From contig JAFUXN010000047.1 of assembly GCA_017477125.1 (NCBI GenBank), positions 1 through 40,762 of the forward strand: 40,762 nucleotides of DNA. Reading direction: 5' to 3'. The translations under genes were made by a program, and so were the position numbers. Position 1 is the stretch's first letter. Each line of letters starts with the position of its first letter. This document shows positions 1 through 40,762 of this stretch, one piece after another. The notes beneath the pieces are model-generated. The model was given only the letters and a program-made list of their open reading frames with translations. It ran no database searches and was not told where the DNA came from. Source of the DNA: Selenomonadaceae bacterium (GTDB lineage Bacteria; Bacillota; Negativicutes; Selenomonadales; Selenomonadaceae).

Positions 1-408
1 AAGGGCGCACCGCCTTCCTCGCCGGCGGGCACCCTTTCCTACTTCCGATCATCATTGTGAGCTGAAAAAGTCTGTGGGGCGGAAAAATAAAAGGGCGCAC
101 CGCCTTCCTCGCCGGCGGGCGCCCTTTCCTACTTCCGATCGTCATTGTGAGACGAAAAAGTTTGTGGGCGGAGAAGAAATAAAGGGGCGCGTCGCCTCCC
201 TTGTCGGCGGGCGCCCTTCCTCTGCTTGGCGCTCGTCATTGTGAGATTAAAAAGTTTTTGGGGCGGAGAAGAAATAAAAGGGCGCTCCGCCTTCCTTGCC
301 GGCGGGCACCCTTTCTCTTTCGATTGCAGATAATTTTTAGGTGCTCACAAAGTTTTAGAGGACGAAAAAATAAAGGGCGAGCCGCCACGCGAGCAGGCGG
401 GCGCCCGT
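1..408. repeat. GC-rich imperfect-hairpin array 1 (five units) behind mlaF
   Basis: Five copies of an imperfect palindrome start near 1, 91, 182, 278 and 373, a spacing of 90-95 bases. Each has a left arm like GGGCGAGCCGCC, a loop of about 9 bases and a right arm like GGCGGGCGCCC. The arms pair as two 5-bp GC stems around a small asymmetric internal loop. The first four inter-unit segments are also alike (CATTGTGAG, GAAAAAGT, GTGGGGCGGA, then an A-rich run), so the true repeat is the whole unit of about 90 bases. The unit nearest mlaF lies 5 bases beyond its stop codon. No gene is seen here. Arrays 2 and 3 are built from the same hairpin. Confidence 0.9.
365..406 (-). terminator. Probable intrinsic terminator of the kds-mla operon (array unit 5)
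   Basis: Read on the minus strand just after the mlaF stop, the hairpin GGGCGCCCGCC / GGCGGCTCGCCC (396-406 with 375-386) is followed directly by TTTATTTTTT (complement of 365-374). This is the form of a rho-independent terminator. A T-run also follows the hairpin on the plus strand (408-414), so it could act in both directions. Confidence 0.65.
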
Positions 409-412
409 TTTT

Positions 413-1141
413 TTATACTCTCAAACCTGCGAAGAACTCTTGCACTCTGGGATCGGGGAGCCGACGGAAATTCTCAACCGTGTCTAGCGCAATCAGATCA
501 CCTTGATACACCATCGCGATCCGATTCGCTATCCGACACGCCGACGCCATGTCATGCGTCACCACCACGCTCGTCACCCCCAACGCCTTCTGCGTCGAGA
601 TGATCAGCTCATCGATCTTCGTCGTCGTGATCGGATCAAGCCCGCTCGACGGCTCGTCATAGAAAATGATCTCCGGCTCAAACGCGATCGCTCGAGCCAG
701 GCTCACCCGCTTCTTCATGCCTCCGCTCAATTCGTTCGGCATCAGATGCTCCACGCCCTCGAGCCCCACCTGCTTGAGCTTCTCCTTGACGATCGCTTTG
801 ATCTTATCTTCGGGGTAATCGGTATGCTCGACCAGTCCGAACGCAACGTTGTCGCCCACCGTCATCGAATCGAATAACGCACTGTACTGAAATACCATGC
901 CCATTCTCAATCGTACATGCGTGAGCTCGTCCTCCGTCATTGTCGAGATTTCGTCGTCGCCAATCCAAATCTCGCCCTCCGTCGGTTGGATCAATCCGAT
1001 CATCAATCGAAGGAGCGTCGACTTCCCAGACCCCGACCCGCCTATGATCGCCAACGTCTCACCGTCATTGATCTCGAGCGAAATATTTTTGAGCGCCGCC
1101 TTCTTGCCGAAGTACTTGCTCACATTCTTAATCTTGATCAT
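413..1141 (-). CDS. mlaF: MlaF: ATP-binding protein of the Mla phospholipid transporter
   Basis: This is the cytoplasmic ATPase of the MlaFED-type ABC transporter, which moves phospholipids between inner and outer membrane. The 242-residue protein has all the ABC motifs: Walker A GGSGSGKST at 34-42, Q-loop FQYSALF near 84-90, signature LSGG at 138-141 and Walker B IIFYDEP at 158-164, then SSGLDP and a switch histidine in VVTHD. Length and motif order match MlaF/Ttg2A. The ATG lies 3 bases beyond the mlaE stop, so the two are cotranscribed. The partner mlaD is not beside it but about 8 kb away on the opposite strand. A hairpin terminator follows. Confidence is high. Confidence 0.95.
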   Translation of the reverse strand: MIKIKNVSKYFGKKAALKNISLEINDGETLAIIGGSGSGKSTLLRLMIGLIQPTEGEIWIGDDEISTMTEDELTHVRLRMGMVFQYSALFDSMTVGDNVAFGLVEHTDYPEDKIKAIVKEKLKQVGLEGVEHLMPNELSGGMKKRVSLARAIAFEPEIIFYDEPSSGLDPITTTKIDELIISTQKALGVTSVVVTHDMASACRIANRIAMVYQGDLIALDTVENFRRLPDPRVQEFFAGLRV

Positions 1142-3529: not shown

Positions 3530-4348
3530 TTAAAACTCCTTCGCCACATTATGAACTGCCAACACTTTTTTCAACAACGGCTCGAGCTCGTCAAGCGGAA
3601 CCATGTTCGCGCCGTCCGACAGAGCTTCGCTTGGATTGTCATGCACCTCGAGAAATAATCCGTCGATGCCAACCGCCGCCGCCGCTCGACACAAATACTC
3701 AACAAACTCCCGTTGACCGCTCGACTTCGTGCCGCCGCCGCCCGGCAATTGAACGCTGTGAGTGCCGTCGAAGATGATCGGGTACCCGAACGATCTCATA
3801 ATCGGCAACGAACGCATGTCGACGACCAGATTATTGTAGCCGAACGACGCGCCGCGCTCGGTGAGCATGATCCGTCGGCTGCCGAAGTACTCAAGTTTCT
3901 CGACGACGTTCTTCATGTCGAGCGGCGAGAGGAATTGCCCCTTCTTGACGTTGACGATCGCCCCCGTCTGAGCCGCCGCCTTCAACAGATCGGTTTGTCG
4001 ACAGAGGAACGCCGGGATTTGAATGATGTCGGCGACCTTCGACACCGGTTCGGCTTGGCTCGTCTCATGAATGTCGGTGACGATCGGGACGTTGAGCTCG
4101 GCTTTGATCGTCGCAAGCTGTTCGAGCCCGACATCGAGCCCGGGTCCGCGCGGATTTTTATACGAGCTTCGATTGGCTTTATCGAATGACGCTTTGAAGA
4201 TGTACGGGATATCGAGACGAGCGGCGATCTCCTTGACGCGCCGACCGATCATCAACGATCGTTCAAGCCCTTCGAGCACACAGGGACCCGCCATCAGGAT
4301 CAGACGCCCGTCGCCGATTGTGATGTTGTCGAGCTGAATTTTATTCAT
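3530..4348 (-). CDS. kdsA: KdsA: 3-deoxy-8-phosphooctulonate synthase
   Basis: It condenses phosphoenolpyruvate with arabinose-5-phosphate to give Kdo-8-phosphate in the cytoplasm. The 272-residue protein has the family hallmarks: AGPCVLEGL at 20-28, [48 protein letters not shown] and [12 protein letters not shown]. Cys23 in the N-terminal motif, where the E. coli enzyme has Asn, points to the metal-dependent class; that assignment follows family knowledge and is not tested here. The gene overlaps the end of kdsB by 8 bases and is followed by kdsD after one base. Confidence 0.96.
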
Positions 4349-5078
4349 GAGCCACCTCGTTGTAAATTTTATTGACGAGGATCAGATCGTCCTCGGTGTC
4401 GACGCCGATGAATTTGTCGGCGCTGATGATCACTTTGATCTTATGACCGTTCTCGAGCGCGCGCAACTGCTCAAGCGATTCGGCTTGTTCGAGCGGCGTC
4501 GGAGACATTGCGGCGTACTCGAGCAGGAAATTTTTACGATAGGCGTAGATGCCGATGTGTTTATAAACTTTCGACTTGCCGACGTTGCGCTCGAAAGGGA
4601 TTGCCGAACGCGAGAAGTAGAGGGCATTGCGATTACGATCCATCACGACCTTGACGTTATTGGGGTTGGCGATCTCCGAAGGATCGTTGAGCTCGACGGC
4701 GACGGTCGCCATGTTCAATTGGTCGTCGTGATCGAATTGAGCAATGAGCTCGTCGATGAGATTGGGATTGATCAACGGTTCGTCGCCCTGTACGTTGATG
4801 ATCAGATCAGCGTCGGGGAACGATTGAGCGGCTTCGGCGAGGCGATCGGTGCCGGTGTTGTGATCGGCTCGGGTCATGACGGCTCGACCGTTGTTGTTGG
4901 TGACGGCGTCGAAGATTCGTTGATCGTCGGTGGCGACGACGGTAGCCGATGCTCGTTTGGATTGAGCGGCGCGTTGATACACTCGACAGATCATTGGAAG
5001 TCCGGCGATCAATCTCAACGGTTTGCCGGGCAATCGGGTTGATGCGTAACGCGCGGGTATGATGCATATTGCCTCCAA
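4341..5078 (-). CDS. kdsB: KdsB: CMP-Kdo synthetase
   Basis: It activates Kdo with CTP to give CMP-Kdo, the donor used by WaaA. I place the start at TTG 5078 ([13 protein letters not shown]), because GGAGG lies 11 bases upstream and the family normally begins almost directly with this strand; a longer form would start at 5096. The 245 residues include [19 protein letters not shown], the NVQGDEPL motif, YFSRSAIPF and [10 protein letters not shown], all typical of KdsB. It is the first gene of the kdsB-kdsA-kdsD-orf132-DUF2283-mlaE-mlaF run and lies directly downstream of repeat array 2. Confidence 0.95.
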
Positions 5079-5099
5079 AGCAGTTCTCTCCTCCAAAAA

Positions 5100-5128
5100 A
5101 ATATTGTTCTGACGTTCTGCGTCCTCAA
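5100..5128 (-). promoter_or_regulatory. Weak candidate promoter for kdsB
   Basis: On the minus strand TTGAGG (complement of 5123-5128) and AATATT (5100-5105) are 17 bases apart, ahead of the kdsB ribosome site. The -10 is a poor match. A direct repeat of CAGAAC lies between them. If real, kdsB-mlaF is a unit separate from waaA-lpxK. Confidence 0.35.
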
Positions 5129-5173
5129 TCGTCGCTACGTCTCTCTAAAAATTATTTTGCCGCCGACATGGTT

Positions 5174-6039
5174 AGGGCGAGCCGCCCCATGCGGGAGGCG
5201 GGCGTCCTTTCCTTTTATCCGTCGCCACCGGCATCGCATGTTGAAGATGGGCAACGATGAAAGGAAGGCGTCGCCGCCGGTTCGCGGGGCGGACGCCGCC
5301 GGCATCGGGAGGCGGTCGCCCTTATTTTTCTTCGTCGCCACCGTCATCGCATGTTGAAGGTGGACGACGATGGAAGGAAGGCGTCGCCGCCTGTACGCGG
5401 GGCGGACGCCGCCAACTCCTTCAGCCGACCCAAAAAATTTTTATGGTGAAGGGCGAGCCGCCCCATGCGGGAGGCGGGCGCCCGTCTCTTTCCTTCAACA
5501 CCCCAATCGTTGTGCCGTCGACCACGGAGCAGGGCGAGCCATTAGGGAGGCGGGCGCCCTTTCCTTTCCTTCGGCACCCAACCGTTGTGCCGACGTCCAC
5601 GGTGAAGGGCGAGCCGCCGGCATCGGGAGGCGGGCGCCCTTCTTTTTCTCCGTTTCCCCCAGCATCGGATGTTGAAGGCGGGCAACGATGAAAGGAAGGC
5701 GTCGCCGCCCGTTCGCGGGGCGGACGACGCCAACTTCTTCAGCCACCCCAAAAAATTTTTATGGAGAAGGGCGCGCCGCCCCATCGGGTAGGCGGGCGCC
5801 CGTTCCTTTCCTTCGACACCCCAACCGTTGAGCCGCTGACCAGGATAAGGGCGAGCCGCCCCGTGAGTAGGCGGGCGCCCCTTCCTTTCCTTCAACACCC
5901 CAACCGTTGTGCCGACGCCCACGGAGCAGGGCGAGCCGCCCCATCGGGAGGCGGGCGCCCGTTCTTTCCTTCGGCACCCAACTGTTGAGCCGCCGACCAC
6001 GGAGCAGGGCGAGCCGCCGCGTGAGAAGGCGGGCGCCCG
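5174..6039. repeat. GC-rich imperfect-hairpin array 2 (about eleven units) behind waaA-lpxK
   Basis: Canonical units (GGGCGAGCCGCC, loop, GGCGGGCGCCC) lie near 5174, 5449, 5531, 5605, 5767, 5847, 5928 and 6006. Variant units of the form GGCGTCGCCGCC / GGGGCGGACGCC lie near 5265, 5378 and 5696. Spacing is about 71-91 bases where units are consecutive. Spacers share CTTTCCTTC, CACCCCAACCGTTG and CACGGAGCAGG. A composite of variant unit, A6T5 tract and canonical unit is present twice, about 318 bases apart (from 5371 and from 5689), so the array grew partly by segmental duplication. It fills the roughly 1 kb between waaA-lpxK and kdsB. Open frames on both strands are by-products of the GC-rich repeat. 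Confidence 0.9.
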
Positions 6040-6067
6040 ACTTTTTCATCGTCGCCCCTTGCATTGT

Positions 6068-8557
6068 TTAGGTTCGTGGTCCCAACTTCTCTTCAAGCTG
6101 ACGTTTGAGCTCGCGTTGGAAATCCGACGCCCCGCTTTGGAACTTCACCTCGACGCAGATCACATAGATCGGGATATTCCAATTCGCCTTCGCCACCTCG
6201 ACTGGAATTTTCACCGCGTCCTTCTCGGTGATCACTATCGATTCGGCACCTTGAGCCTCCGCCTGCTGCAGAACATCTTCCATCTCCTTCATCGTGTACT
6301 CGTGATGATCGGGGTAACGGAGGCTCTCAATGATCTGCGCTCCCAAATCCTTCAACGTCCTCTCGAACGACGCAGGATTGCCGATCGCCGACACCGCCAT
6401 CACCCTCTTGCCGTTGATCTTCTCAACGTTCACGCCCTCGCCCGCCAAGTTCACATACCAATCCGCCAACGGTATGAAGCACCGCGGTTGATGAATGCTC
6501 TCGACGATCTGCGCCTTATCATTATACTTGTGTACCGTCTCTCGAATGTATTTGCACGAGCCCGCCGCCGCTTGGTCGACCTTCGTCATCAGACAGACGT
6601 TCGCCCGACTGATATGCGACATCGATTCTCTCAACGTTCCGCGCGGAAGCAGATAGCCGTTGCCGAACACGTTGACCGCATCGACCAACAGAATATCCAT
6701 GTCGCGAACCAACTGCCAGTGCTGATATCCGTCGTCGAGGATCGCCACTTCCGCTCCAAAGTGTTCGATCGCATATTGACCCGTCACCGCCCGTTGAGCT
6801 CCGATCAACACCGGCACATTCGGAAGGTGCTTGGCGAGCATGTAAGCCTCATCGCCCGCCTCCGCCGCGTCCATGTGAAGTTGCTTGCCGTCTGAAACGA
6901 TCCCGACCTCTCCATGCCATTTTGCTCTGTAGCCGCGATTGAGGATCACCACGCGATAACCCATGTCTCTGATGTCTCGCGCCAACCGTTGAGCCGTCGG
7001 CGTCTTGCCCGTCCCGCCGACCGTGATGTTACCCAAACTGATCACGTAGCAATCGAGCTTCTCGCGATTCGACAGCCCCAGCTTGTAACCCAGCAGTTTG
7101 ATGTTGACCAACTGCTCATAGATCAGCGAGAAGACATACAACACCGCCATCAGCAAATTCATCGTGATCCCGTGCACTTCTTTGTCGCGCATAATGTGCA
7201 GGAAATACGTCTGCAGATTTTCAACCTTCTCGGTCGTGTGCACGTGCTTGGCATTCTCCTGCTCCTCGTACTCGGTCAGCATTTGACGCAACAGGATCGC
7301 AGATTTGCGCGCCGCCCCGCGATTCTCCTTGACGATCGCAATCGTCTCCGCCTCGAGCCGACGACGCTCAACGGGATCGTCGAAGAGCTTGGACGCCTGC
7401 TCGGTCAGCTCCTTCGGACTGTTGACCGTGACGCAGGCATTTCGATTCTTGAACAGCGCGTGAGTGTCCTTGAAATTCTCCATGTGGTAGCCGACAATGA
7501 TCGCCTTGCCATGCGCCGCCGGCTCCAAAATGTTGTGCCCGCCATGGGTCACGAGACTGCCGCCGACGTAGATCACATCGCCGATCGAATAAATCTTTCC
7601 AAGCTCGCCTATCGTATCGAGCACGATGATATCTTCATTGTTGGGCGGACGTTTTTGCAGTTCGGTACGGCTGGCGACAGTGAAGCCCGATTTCTTACAG
7701 ATGTGAAGGACTTCCATTGAACGCAACAGTTCACGCGGAGCGATCACCAATCGAGCGCGCGGATGATTCTCTCTGATCTTCCTGAACGCGTTGATGATAT
7801 AAGTCTCCTCACTTCGATGCGAACTGCCCGCGATCAAAATTCCTTCGGCATCGGTCAAGCCCATGTCGGACAGGATTTTCGATTTCTCCTCGGCGGTCAC
7901 GTCGGTGTAGGTTTGATCGAATTTCGTATTGCCGGTTACGATCACCAGCTCATCGGGCGCGCCCAACTGCTTTATGTAATCGGCATCGATGGGAGATTGC
8001 ATCGCGAACAGCTTGACCGTCTTGATCATATTGGTTAGGATCGAGAACAGATACTTATAACGCTTGACGCTCTTATCGGAGATTCTTCCGTTGACCATCA
8101 TCACCGGAATGCTCAACTCGCGCGCCGCTTTCAGGAAGTTGGGCCAAAGCTCCGTCTCGACGTTGAGGAAAACTCTCGGGTGTATTCGACGGAGGACATG
8201 GGCGGCAACGAACGGCAAGTCGAGCGGAAAATATATGATCGAGTCCGCGTCCTTGATGATCCGCTTCGCCATTTCGTAGCCGCTGGTCGTCACCACCGAC
8301 ACCAGGATCGGCGACTTGGGGAACTCTTGACGAAACTCTTTGATCAACGGACTGGTGGCGACGATCTCTCCGACCGAGGCGGCGTGCACCCAAATGCAAT
8401 TTTTCTTCGCCACGGGCTCGAGTGCCTCCTCGGGGATCATTCCGAGGCTCTGCTTGATCCTCTCGACGAAGCCCTTCTCTCTAATCGCGCGGATCATGAA
8501 CATCGGGATGATGAAAATCACCACGATGATCGCCGCGATGTTGTAGAGTAATTGCAT
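6068..8557 (-). CDS. waaA-lpxK: WaaA-LpxK fusion: Kdo transferase and lipid A 4'-kinase
   Basis: An 829-residue bifunctional protein for lipid A maturation. Residues 1 to about 430 are WaaA (KdtA), which adds Kdo from CMP-Kdo to lipid IVA: N-terminal membrane anchor 4-22, HAASVGE at 58-64, VETELWPN at 133-140 and GGSLVTHGGHNILEPAAHG at 332-350. Residues from about 465 to the end are LpxK, which phosphorylates the 4' position of the disaccharide: a short hydrophobic segment, P-loop GNITVGGTGKTP at 509-520, LNRGYRA, LDDGYQHW and TEKDAVK. Both halves look intact and no stop or frameshift lies between them. GAGGTGA precedes the ATG. The fusion couples two steps usually made by separate proteins. 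Confidence 0.95.
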   Translation of the reverse strand: MQLLYNIAAIIVVIFIIPMFMIRAIREKGFVERIKQSLGMIPEEALEPVAKKNCIWVHAASVGEIVATSPLIKEFRQEFPKSPILVSVVTTSGYEMAKRIIKDADSIIYFPLDLPFVAAHVLRRIHPRVFLNVETELWPNFLKAARELSIPVMMVNGRISDKSVKRYKYLFSILTNMIKTVKLFAMQSPIDADYIKQLGAPDELVIVTGNTKFDQTYTDVTAEEKSKILSDMGLTDAEGILIAGSSHRSEETYIINAFRKIRENHPRARLVIAPRELLRSMEVLHICKKSGFTVASRTELQKRPPNNEDIIVLDTIGELGKIYSIGDVIYVGGSLVTHGGHNILEPAAHGKAIIVGYHMENFKDTHALFKNRNACVTVNSPKELTEQASKLFDDPVERRRLEAETIAIVKENRGAARKSAILLRQMLTEYEEQENAKHVHTTEKVENLQTYFLHIMRDKEVHGITMNLLMAVLYVFSLIYEQLVNIKLLGYKLGLSNREKLDCYVISLGNITVGGTGKTPTAQRLARDIRDMGYRVVILNRGYRAKWHGEVGIVSDGKQLHMDAAEAGDEAYMLAKHLPNVPVLIGAQRAVTGQYAIEHFGAEVAILDDGYQHWQLVRDMDILLVDAVNVFGNGYLLPRGTLRESMSHISRANVCLMTKVDQAAAGSCKYIRETVHKYNDKAQIVESIHQPRCFIPLADWYVNLAGEGVNVEKINGKRVMAVSAIGNPASFERTLKDLGAQIIESLRYPDHHEYTMKEMEDVLQQAEAQGAESIVITEKDAVKIPVEVAKANWNIPIYVICVEVKFQSGASDFQRELKRQLEEKLGPRT

Positions 8558-39246: not shown

Positions 39247-39842
39247 TGCTGACAAAGGATCTGTTCATCGGCAAGGGCGGGCATCAGGAGGCGTACGTTC
39301 ACCCCGATGATCCGTCGAAGTGCGTAAAGATCGCGTTCGATCCGAACGACGGCGACGTCAAGAAGGAGCTCCGCTATCGACGGATTTGCGCCGACAAACT
39401 TTCGCGCTCGAAACTCGTAACCAAGTACTACGGCGAGGTTGAGACCGACAAGGGCAGAGGGCTGGTGTTCGAACGCGTGATGAACTTCGACGGTGCGTCG
39501 TCGCTCGATCTCAAAGATTATTTGTCGGCAGTGTCGACGGCGGAGGAAGTCGATCAAAGTCGGGCATTGCTCATGGATTTTCGGAAAGACTTTTTGGAGG
39601 AGGGCATTGCGATCGTCGACACCGATATCACCAACTTCATGGTGCAACGTGTATCGCCGACCGAAACTCAAATGCGCATCGTCGACAACATAGGGACGCC
39701 GGTGCTGATCCCGCTGGTCTACTACTCCGATTACATTGCTCGGCGCAAAGCTCGAAGAGTTTGGAACCGCATAGTCGATTGGCTGAAGGAAAATTATCCG
39801 TCGGTGGTCGATGAAAAATTTTATGGGGAGTTGAGGGCATGA
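39225..39842 (+). CDS. YrbL-like kinase-fold protein
   Basis: A 205-residue protein of the PhoP-regulated YrbL family, related to small kinase-like folds. Matching features are GKGGHQEAYVHPDDPSKCVK near the N-terminus (glycine loop, then the strand with the ATP-lysine position), KKELRYRR, TKYYGEVETDKGRGLVFE, VDTDITNFMV (catalytic-loop-like) and VDNIGTPVLIPL (metal-binding-like). TTG 39225 is used here; ATG 39246, which overlaps the upstream stop (TAATG), is an alternative. In E. coli yrbL is part of the PhoP regulon. Its place between a deacetylase and pagL suggests it phosphorylates or regulates an LPS component. Confidence 0.85.
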   Translation: MAEKKILMLTKDLFIGKGGHQEAYVHPDDPSKCVKIAFDPNDGDVKKELRYRRICADKLSRSKLVTKYYGEVETDKGRGLVFERVMNFDGASSLDLKDYLSAVSTAEEVDQSRALLMDFRKDFLEEGIAIVDTDITNFMVQRVSPTETQMRIVDNIGTPVLIPLVYYSDYIARRKARRVWNRIVDWLKENYPSVVDEKFYGELRA

Positions 39843-40405
39843 GAAGAATTTTGCTGTTGATGGTCGCGCTGTTGATGTTGGCGTCGACGGCGAGCGCGGA
39901 CGATCCCGATCCCAAGCGGACGATCGAAGTGCAGCTCGAACGCTTCAACGGGCATATGTTCGACAAGCGCAAGGTCAACAATTATAATGTGCATGTCTTT
40001 CAGAAGGTGCATGATCATCGAGCGCTGTCGGTGTACCGCGGGCTGACGTTCATGCGCGCGACGGGTTACATCAGGACGCACAACAATGATGATCTGCTCG
40101 AGAGCGGCGCGGTCGGATTTGGTCCGGCGTTGATGCTCCGTTGGACGCAGCCTTTGACGGGTAAGCTCCACTTGGCGGGCGACTTCACCGGCAGTCTGTT
40201 GGCGTGCGACCATGCTCATCCCGCCAACGGTCGAGCGTACGGATTCATGTGGCGCGTGGGACCGAGATTGATCTGGCAGTACAACGAAGACGACTCGATC
40301 AGCGCGGGCTACTCGGTGAGCCACTTCTCCAACGGCACGCGCAAATCTCATAATCCGGGCTACAACAGCATGGGCTTCACCGTCAACTTCCAACACAAAT
40401 TCTAA
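39839..40405 (+). CDS. pagL: PagL-like lipid A 3-O-deacylase
   Basis: An outer-membrane hydrolase that removes the 3-O acyl chain from lipid A, lowering its potency. The 188-residue precursor has a signal peptide (RRILLLMVALLMLASTASA, cut before DDP) and an eight-strand-type barrel. The catalytic motif is SHFSNGTRKSHNPGYNSMG, with the His-x-Ser-Asn pattern of the family, and the protein ends in FQHKF with terminal Phe. The ATG overlaps the YrbL stop by 4 bases (ATGA), so it is translationally coupled. A hairpin array begins 18 bases after the stop. Confidence is high for the family; acyl specificity is not visible. Confidence 0.88.
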   Translation: MRRILLLMVALLMLASTASADDPDPKRTIEVQLERFNGHMFDKRKVNNYNVHVFQKVHDHRALSVYRGLTFMRATGYIRTHNNDDLLESGAVGFGPALMLRWTQPLTGKLHLAGDFTGSLLACDHAHPANGRAYGFMWRVGPRLIWQYNEDDSISAGYSVSHFSNGTRKSHNPGYNSMGFTVNFQHKF

Positions 40406-40422: not shown

Positions 40423-40762
40423 AAGGGCGCCCGCCTTCTCATGGGGCGGCTCGCCCTTATCCTGTATTCGATGCCAAACCATGACGGAAGGGGCGGCGGA
40501 AGAAAGGAACGGGCGCCCGCCAGCTCATGGGGCGGCTCGCCCTAACTCTATCAGTCAATGCCAAACCATGAACGGAAGGGGTGGCGAGGAAAAAACGGGC
40601 GCCCGCCTGCTCATGGGGCGGCTCGCCCTAACTCTATCAGTCGATGCCAAACCCTGAATGTGCGGAAGGGGTGGCGAGGAAAAAACGGGCGACCGCCTGC
40701 GCATGGGGCGGCTCGCCCTAACGCTATCAGTCGATGCTAAACCATGACGTAAGGGGCGGCGA
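40423..40762. repeat. GC-rich imperfect-hairpin array 3 (four units, running to the window edge) behind pagL
   Basis: Units lie at 40423-40458, 40510-40543, 40596-40630 and 40686-40720. They read GGGCGCCCGCC, loop, GGCGGCTCGCCC on the plus strand, the reverse complement of arrays 1 and 2. Spacers share CTCTATCAGTC, ATGCCAAACC and GGAAGGGGTGGCGA. The array continues to the end of the window and probably beyond. No gene is seen in it. Confidence 0.9.

What the first reader, a model, noticed from the sequence alone, without database searches (positions are those of the whole stretch)
5174..6039. A family of tandem imperfect-hairpin arrays at gene ends
Three separate arrays (1-408, 5174-6039, 40423-40762) share one hairpin, about 35 bases long, set in a larger unit of roughly 75-95 bases with its own conserved spacer. 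Arms GGGCGCCCGCC / GGCGGCTCGCCC pair as two GC stems around an asymmetric 1x2 internal loop that is kept in most copies, which suggests selection on structure. The arrays contain no transposase and no cas gene. I know no named repeat family that fits; the closest idea is REP/BIME elements, but here the copies are tandem and regular.
Basis: seen in the sequence. Interest (0 to 1): 0.75.

Follow-up and report, generated by a model that had tools for sequence, protein, structure and literature searches.

The report
Oriented hairpin repeat arrays after genes
One rumen-type bacterium carries dozens of tandem arrays of a short imperfect hairpin just after gene stop codons, mostly pointing the same way as the gene; it resembles the known REP palindromes but without their usual tag, pairing or transposase.

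Summary
The three arrays are real and belong to one family spread through this genome (Selenomonadaceae-type assembly). The hairpin is GGGCG-(NN)-CCGCC / GGCGG-(N)-CGCCC; the 2x1 internal loop is the best fit for 265 of 282 close copies. Arms diverge 6% between units of an array, spacers 19%. First hairpins start a median 26 nt after a stop codon and lie in one orientation relative to that gene in 30 of 35 informative clusters; of 29 clusters with both flanks seen, none is between divergent genes. The window array separates waaA-lpxK from kdsB, whose matches lie 26-78 nt apart in 10 of 11 relatives. No Y1/RAYT transposase, reverse transcriptase or integron integrase passed threshold. No convincing copy in relatives (capped searches). 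Compensatory change is modest, without G.U preference on either strand; loop type and T tracts partly favour the antisense strand. Best reading: an untagged REP-like 3'-end repeat, head-to-tail and oriented with transcription; mode of spread unknown.

The parts
3..406 (+). Array 1: 5 main hairpins (A strand +) after the 3' end of the MlaF-like ABC gene 413-1141(-); cut by the contig start. On the gene's sense strand the hairpin nearest the gene is followed by TTTATTTTTT
   Evidence: gene by Pfam ABC_tran
5175..6038 (+). Array 2: 8 close main hairpins (A strand +) between the 3' end of waaA-lpxK (6068-8557, -) and kdsB (-)
5267..5297 (+). Second hairpin type, GGCGTC-GC-CGCC / GGCG-GACGCC
   Evidence: 0 substitutions
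5380..5410 (+). Second hairpin type
   Evidence: 0 substitutions
5698..5728 (+). Second hairpin type
   Evidence: 1 substitution
40425..40718 (-). Array 3: 4 main hairpins (A strand -) 19 nt after the stop of the PagL-like gene 39839-40405(+); cut by the contig end
   Evidence: PagL by Pfam
6068..8557 (-). waaA-lpxK fusion, the gene upstream of array 2
   Evidence: Pfam Glycos_transf_N and LpxK
4341..5069 (-). kdsB (cytidylyltransferase), the gene downstream of array 2
   Evidence: Pfam CTP_transf_3; relatives

Best explanation
The arrays are an untagged, REP-like palindromic repeat family that spread within this species' lineage to the 3' ends of many genes and expanded there in tandem. Each array would be read as the tail of the upstream gene's mRNA: stop codon, A-rich leader, then a row of GC-rich hairpins in one orientation. 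I propose that the row shields the message from 3'-to-5' exonucleases and that the last hairpin, where it has a T run, ends transcription; arrays in other places or orientations are mostly lost. Tandem growth is probably by slippage or unequal exchange. The step that copies the unit to new sites is not identified. Shown: family, structure, placement, orientation bias, arm conservation, distal T-run enrichment, no array at two sites in the relatives examined. Inferred: transcription, exonuclease block, termination, mode of spread.
For: Family: 322 close copies in 66 clusters; at least 150 model hits, capped. Placement: first hairpin 2-124 nt after a stop, median 26, 32 of 38 within 48 nt; of 29 clusters with both flanks seen 24 codirectional, 5 convergent, 0 divergent. 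Orientation: 20 of 23 codirectional uniform clusters plus 10 of 12 with only a gene 5' end seen = 30 of 35, p 1.1e-5. Constraint on arms: 6.0% against 18.9% in spacers after adding degenerate units. Distal T runs: TTTT in 16 of 37 distal, 19 of 164 middle, 2 of 36 proximal units, Fisher p 3e-5 distal against middle. Insertion: waaA-lpxK and kdsB matches 26-78 nt apart in 10 of 11 relatives, about 1 kb in the window. Spread plus local growth: spacer identity within arrays 0.74 (median), between 0.57, shuffled 0.51; one spacer type is shared by 24 arrays.
Against: No transcript data. Array 2's distal hairpin has no T run on the sense strand and the simple scan finds 7 terminator-like sites there, all on the antisense (A) strand, against 2.4 in shuffles. 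T tracts are richer on the A strand in proximal and middle units (5.92 and 4.86 of 9, against 4.47 and 4.32 on the B strand; distal 4.59 against 5.11), and GNRA/UNCG-type loops are enriched on the A strand (79 of 322 against 28 in shuffled loops) and depleted on the B strand (8 against 26). G.T and A.C one-sided changes are equal (35, 36). Orientation exceptions: L102, L133, L136, L075, L096; six further clusters next to a 3' end have the other orientation but an unseen far side. Genes were called by my own script, and some flank calls changed between its runs.
Confidence: 0.45

Rival explanations
1. A selfish or neutral REP-like repeat with no host role. Its mobilising enzyme was lost or lies in the missing part of the genome, and 3' ends are where insertions do least harm.
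For: Recent, lineage-limited spread; insertion between neighbouring genes; no G.U strand preference; genome 91.5% complete, so an enzyme could be missing.
Against: Arms far better conserved than spacers within arrays, and the orientation bias at codirectional sites (20 of 23) needs an extra cause. No Y1 transposase or RVT_1 found.
Confidence: 0.3
2. The functional strand is the A strand: each unit is a terminator facing the 3' end of the upstream gene and stops antisense transcription from entering it.
For: T-rich tract after the hairpin on the A strand, no G at +4 to +7 in the first set; 7 A-strand terminator-like sites and none on the other strand in array 2, shuffles 2.4; GNRA-type loops enriched on the A strand.
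Against: No source of antisense transcription is known at codirectional sites; distal units are enriched for T runs on the B strand; loop types may be inherited rather than selected; G.T changes on the A strand are not favoured.
Confidence: 0.15
3. Native intrinsic terminators that grew in place into minisatellites, without mobility.
For: Distal T runs; single copies after stop codons, one with a T9 run (L097).
Against: Spacers are shared between arrays, and relatives have no room for a terminator between waaA-lpxK and kdsB (10 of 11).
Confidence: 0.07
4. attC-like integron sites or a CRISPR array.
For: Imperfect asymmetric palindromes in fixed orientation after genes recall attC sites (recalled, not tested against an attC model); regular spacing recalls CRISPR.
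Against: Integron integrase profile: 38 bits against a cut-off of 265, and all 14 control genomes give sub-threshold hits too. Spacers are homologous repeats. No cas family among 35 window proteins.
Confidence: 0.03

Closest known systems
REP elements and BIMEs (GTAG- and CGTC-tagged super-families; PMC3733652, abstract, passages and one section seen; PMC2817692, passages seen)
   Same: 20-40 nt GC-rich imperfect palindromes in high copy, intergenic, between codirectional and convergent genes, close after gene 3' ends; CGTC repeats also lack a dedicated transposase
   Different: Here no GTAG or CGTC tag at the stem; head-to-tail arrays rather than inverted dimers or alternating BIMEs; orientation tied to the upstream gene; no RAYT; Selenomonadaceae-type host
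Tandem REP/REPIN arrays of Pseudomonas fluorescens SBW25 (PMC3116915, passages seen)
   Same: Ordered tandem arrays of up to 12 REPs including their flanks
   Different: There a few arrays, tied to RAYT-linked REP groups, with orientation that differs between chromosome regions; here 66 clusters sampled with orientation following the upstream gene
Clustered intrinsic-terminator hairpins (PMC8355165, abstract seen)
   Same: Several hairpins shortly after stop codons proposed to act together in termination
   Different: Those are not a repeated sequence family, most often two hairpins

Membership tests
REP (GTAG/CGTC super-families) | Short high-copy imperfect palindrome, mostly intergenic | tested here: met
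   322 close copies in 66 clusters; 6 of 322 inside predicted genes
REP (GTAG/CGTC super-families) | Unpaired GTAG or CGTC tag at one end of the stem | tested here: not met
   Within 7 nt of the stem, of 322 copies: GTAG 3 and 4, CGTC 2 at most at any end; GGAG 37 on the A strand 5' side
REP (GTAG/CGTC super-families) | Mostly inverted dimers, or alternating units in BIMEs | tested here: not met
   63 of 71 clusters have one orientation; of 8 mixed ones 7 switch once and only L077 alternates
REP with RAYT | RAYT (IS200/IS605-like Y1 transposase) in the genome | tested here: not met
   PF01797: 0 matches in the own genome, control positive in 5 of 14 genomes including E. coli; genome 91.5% complete
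Intrinsic terminator | GC hairpin followed by a T run on the sense strand | tested here: inconclusive
   TTTT within 14 nt in 16 of 37 distal but 19 of 164 middle units; array 2 fits only the antisense strand
Integron attC array | Integron integrase | tested here: not met
   TIGR02249: 38 bits, cut-off 265
CRISPR array | Identical repeats with unique spacers and cas genes | tested here: not met
   Spacers homologous within arrays (median identity 0.74); no cas family among 35 window proteins; cas genes elsewhere in the genome were not searched for
Known Rfam RNA | Match at the gathering score | tested here: not met
   0 matches in the window

The most novel reading that the evidence does not exclude
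A palindromic repeat that spreads without a Y1 transposase or reverse transcriptase and is inserted, or kept, in step with transcription: it enters just behind stop codons in a fixed orientation and then grows in tandem, giving one species a genome-wide set of multi-hairpin 3' UTRs. That would be a new mode of repeat dispersal and a lineage-specific 3'-UTR module.
Probability: 0.2. Interest if true: 0.75.

Novelty: new variant of a known kind. Interest (0 to 1): 0.5.

Why it matters
In the REP papers I saw, the repeats are tagged, mostly in inverted pairs or alternating units, and often tied to a RAYT. This is a case in a Selenomonadaceae-type genome with head-to-tail arrays tied to the direction of the upstream gene and no visible mobilising enzyme. 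It offers a natural test of whether such hairpins act on mRNA 3' ends, and of how a palindrome can spread without a RAYT. Many arrays also lie at contig ends, so such repeats probably break short-read assemblies and are undercounted.

Tried and rejected
Mobilising enzymes in the own genome: Y1 transposase and RVT_1 gave no match; integron integrase only a sub-threshold match like all 14 controls. Rfam at gathering score on the window: none. Viral contigs with one exact pattern, plasmid and phage records by blastn: no match. Relatives: BLAST 0 of 40 others; R1 model 1 weak hit in 59 others (E 0.004) and 3 weak hits in 90 others (14 of these are same-genus genomes, so the groups overlap). In both model searches only 103 or 68 candidates per genome were scored and stricter filters were used. 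On inspection the four weak hits were an unrelated perfect hairpin (L182), two loose fits with 3 substitutions (L181, L183) and no fit (L106). TRF on 20 stretches of 7 genus relatives and on 16 kdsB loci showed no comparable array, though two small tandem repeats were not studied further. Uptake-sequence idea: the two arms occur 2 and 0 times in 160 kb of interior own sequence, so rejected. At the C97 site no relative kept the neighbour gene on the fetched piece. Paper searches; no listed title or abstract start described this repeat; only six papers held all of Selenomonas, palindromic repeat and intergenic, none on this subject by title. The terms Selenomonas, Veillonella, Firmicutes and tandem do not occur in the main text of PMC12306157. 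The second-hairpin count (45 of 48 co-oriented) was inflated by 13 hits that overlap main hairpins; one search replaces it.

Full report
What is there. The window is the whole contig C2 of a 2.90 Mb, 154-contig genome, 91.5% complete. The closest named relatives of its KdsB, loci L021-L036, are Selenomonadaceae, Mitsuokella and Selenomonadales records at 63-73% identity, several from rumen or reticulum. Arrays 1 and 3 are cut by the contig ends; array 2 is complete. I call the strand that reads GGGCG(NN)CCGCC-loop-GGCGG(N)CGCCC the A strand and its complement the B strand.

Family in the genome. BLAST with part of array 2 (5763-6050) gave 105 matches on 35 contigs, from a first look of which 40 of 238 candidates were scored. 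I fetched 38 stretches around those matches and 20 around further model hits. With the window this is 311,408 nt, holding 322 close copies (at most 3 substitutions in the 20 arm positions) in 66 clusters of 1 to 13. In nine further stretches (175 kb) chosen without looking for arrays, the only copies were 5 at the start of contig C41; 0 of 157 gene 3' ends had a unit within 150 nt; of 11 further contig starts 4 had arrays. I infer that arrays break the assembly, so contig interiors undercount them.

Anatomy. Common start-to-start spacings are 75-84 and 90-104 nt. Allowing 0 to 4 nt on each side of the internal loop, 2x1 is the best fit for 265 of 282 copies with at most one substitution and 297 of 368 with at most three; a side of 0 by 1 comes next with 12 and 38 (where each copy is counted once per strand, so I halved the totals). 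The bases vary: AG (169) or CG (47) of 238 on one side, G (189), T (25), A (18) or C (6) on the other; the apical loop is 9 nt in 137 and 10 nt in 91 of 238. On the B strand a unit reads: A-rich leader, hairpin, then TTNTC. The leader often carries GGCGACGG: within one substitution and 40 nt before the first hairpin in 16 of 38 clusters, against 6 of 198 gene ends without a unit. A second hairpin type, GGCGTC-GC-CGCC / GGCG-GACGCC, occurs in the same arrays: 48 hits, of which 13 overlap a main hairpin; of the other 35, 32 lie within 250 nt of a main hairpin, all 32 in the same orientation.

Constraint. In pairs of units of one array with alignable spacers, arms differ at 3.3%, spacers at 17.9%, internal-loop bases at 18.1% (258 pairs) and apical loops at 30.3% (196 pairs). 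Detection favours good arms, so I added 35 degenerate units found in double-length gaps: arms 6.0%, spacers 18.9% (339 pairs). Pairing: 97.8% of cells pair in A1, both sides change at 3 of 10 pairs in 5 cells, above the shuffles. In the first set, two-sided paired changes number 14 (2.6 two-sided changes expected if the sides were independent) at up to 3 substitutions and 32 (9.8) at up to 4; 11 of the 14 are A-T at pair 2. One-sided changes are 35 G.T, 36 A.C and 63 transversions on the A strand: G.U is not favoured in either transcript. Structure is kept, but selection on a particular RNA strand is not shown.

Placement and orientation. Genes were called by a codon-usage script trained on the same DNA. 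Of 66 clusters 29 have genes on both sides: 24 codirectional, 5 convergent, none divergent. Of 23 codirectional clusters of one orientation, 20 have the B strand as the sense strand of the upstream gene (p 2.4e-4); the exceptions are L102, L133 and L136. Of 12 more where only a gene 5' end is seen, 10 agree (exceptions L075, L096); together 30 of 35, p 1.1e-5. The script's stricter tally, which needs an abutting 3' end in the right orientation, is 45 of 66. Uniform clusters seen only beside a gene 3' end and cut by the contig end are 16 in this and 6 in the other orientation; those 6 cannot be judged because a convergent gene may lie beyond. In the enlarged set of 71 clusters, 8 are mixed; all begin with minus units on the left and 7 switch once to plus, as expected if two convergent genes each carry units; L077 alternates. 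Two of the eight (L072, L077) are seen to lie between convergent genes, L094 lies between codirectional ones, three have an unseen right flank, and the flanks of L168 and L170 were not examined. The first hairpin starts 2 to 124 nt after the stop codon, median 26; 32 of 38 lie within 48 nt and 11 within 15 nt.

Ends of arrays and strand. On the B strand a run of four or more T follows within 14 nt in 16 of 37 distal, 19 of 164 middle and 2 of 36 proximal units (Fisher p 3e-5, distal against middle). This fits a terminator at the far end of many arrays. Against it: array 2's distal hairpin is followed by TAACCATG; the scan of 4900-6200 found seven terminator-like sites, all on the A strand, shuffles 2.4; the A-strand T tract is richer in proximal and middle units; and GNRA/UNCG-type loops are found on the A strand in 79 of 322 copies (shuffled 28, sd 4.5) and on the B strand in 8 (shuffled 26, sd 4.8). 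I keep an antisense-facing terminator as a rival.

History. Two hundred spacers were compared: median identity 0.74 within arrays, 0.57 between, 0.51 for shuffled; one type (67 spacers) is shared by 24 arrays. That means spread between sites and later local growth. At the array 2 site, 11 of 16 kdsB loci also hold waaA-lpxK; the matches lie 26-78 nt apart in 10, and another stretch, apparently a gene, lies between in L026. In the window they are about 1 kb apart. At the ahcY/amidohydrolase site (13 units, L067), 6 of 17 relatives keep the pair on the fetched piece, with gaps of about 8, 11, 97, 155, 515 and 810 nt; the last four were examined and hold no array. The 97, 155 and 810 values I worked out by hand from the coordinates.

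Mechanism. Data support the family, placement, orientation, arm constraint and distal T runs. That arrays are transcribed, block exonucleases, or terminate is inferred from anatomy and from what is said of REPs. Di Nocera and colleagues report REPs close after 3' ends, between codirectional or convergent genes, and regard many as transcribed (PMC3733652; abstract, passages and the distribution section seen). A 2025 paper cites earlier work that nearly half of E. coli REPs can stall ribosomes near the stop codon (PMC12306157, passage); with 11 of 38 first hairpins within 15 nt of a stop that effect is possible here too.

Known or new. It looks and may work like a REP family, but it fails the tag test, the RAYT test and the inverted-pair/alternation test, so I do not file it as a member of the tagged REP families. 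Untagged REP-like families are mentioned in PMC3733652 (passage), and tandem REP arrays are known in P. fluorescens SBW25 (PMC3116915, passages). The new points are the head-to-tail rule, the tie to the direction of the upstream gene, and the host group. I call it a new variant of a known kind.

Noticed in passing
L077 3023-4264 (G000:C146): The one cluster whose units alternate in orientation (---+-+-+--+-+), like a BIME, between convergent genes.
   Followed up: partly
L134 753-2726 (G000:C44): A 657-aa protein with a RAMP-superfamily match (PF03787, E 8e-13) lies just before an array; a possible type III CRISPR component.
   Followed up: no
window 6068-8557: waaA (Kdo transferase) and lpxK are fused in one 829-aa protein, with homologues covering nearly its whole length in 11 relatives.
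   Followed up: partly
L151 2103-2260 and L155 4033-4188 (G055 and G068, same genus): Small tandem repeats of other sequence (periods about 34 and 58) in relatives; whether they are analogous hairpin arrays was not tested.
   Followed up: no
L026 5327-6000: A stretch of about 670 nt, apparently a gene, lies between waaA-lpxK and kdsB in this relative.
   Followed up: no
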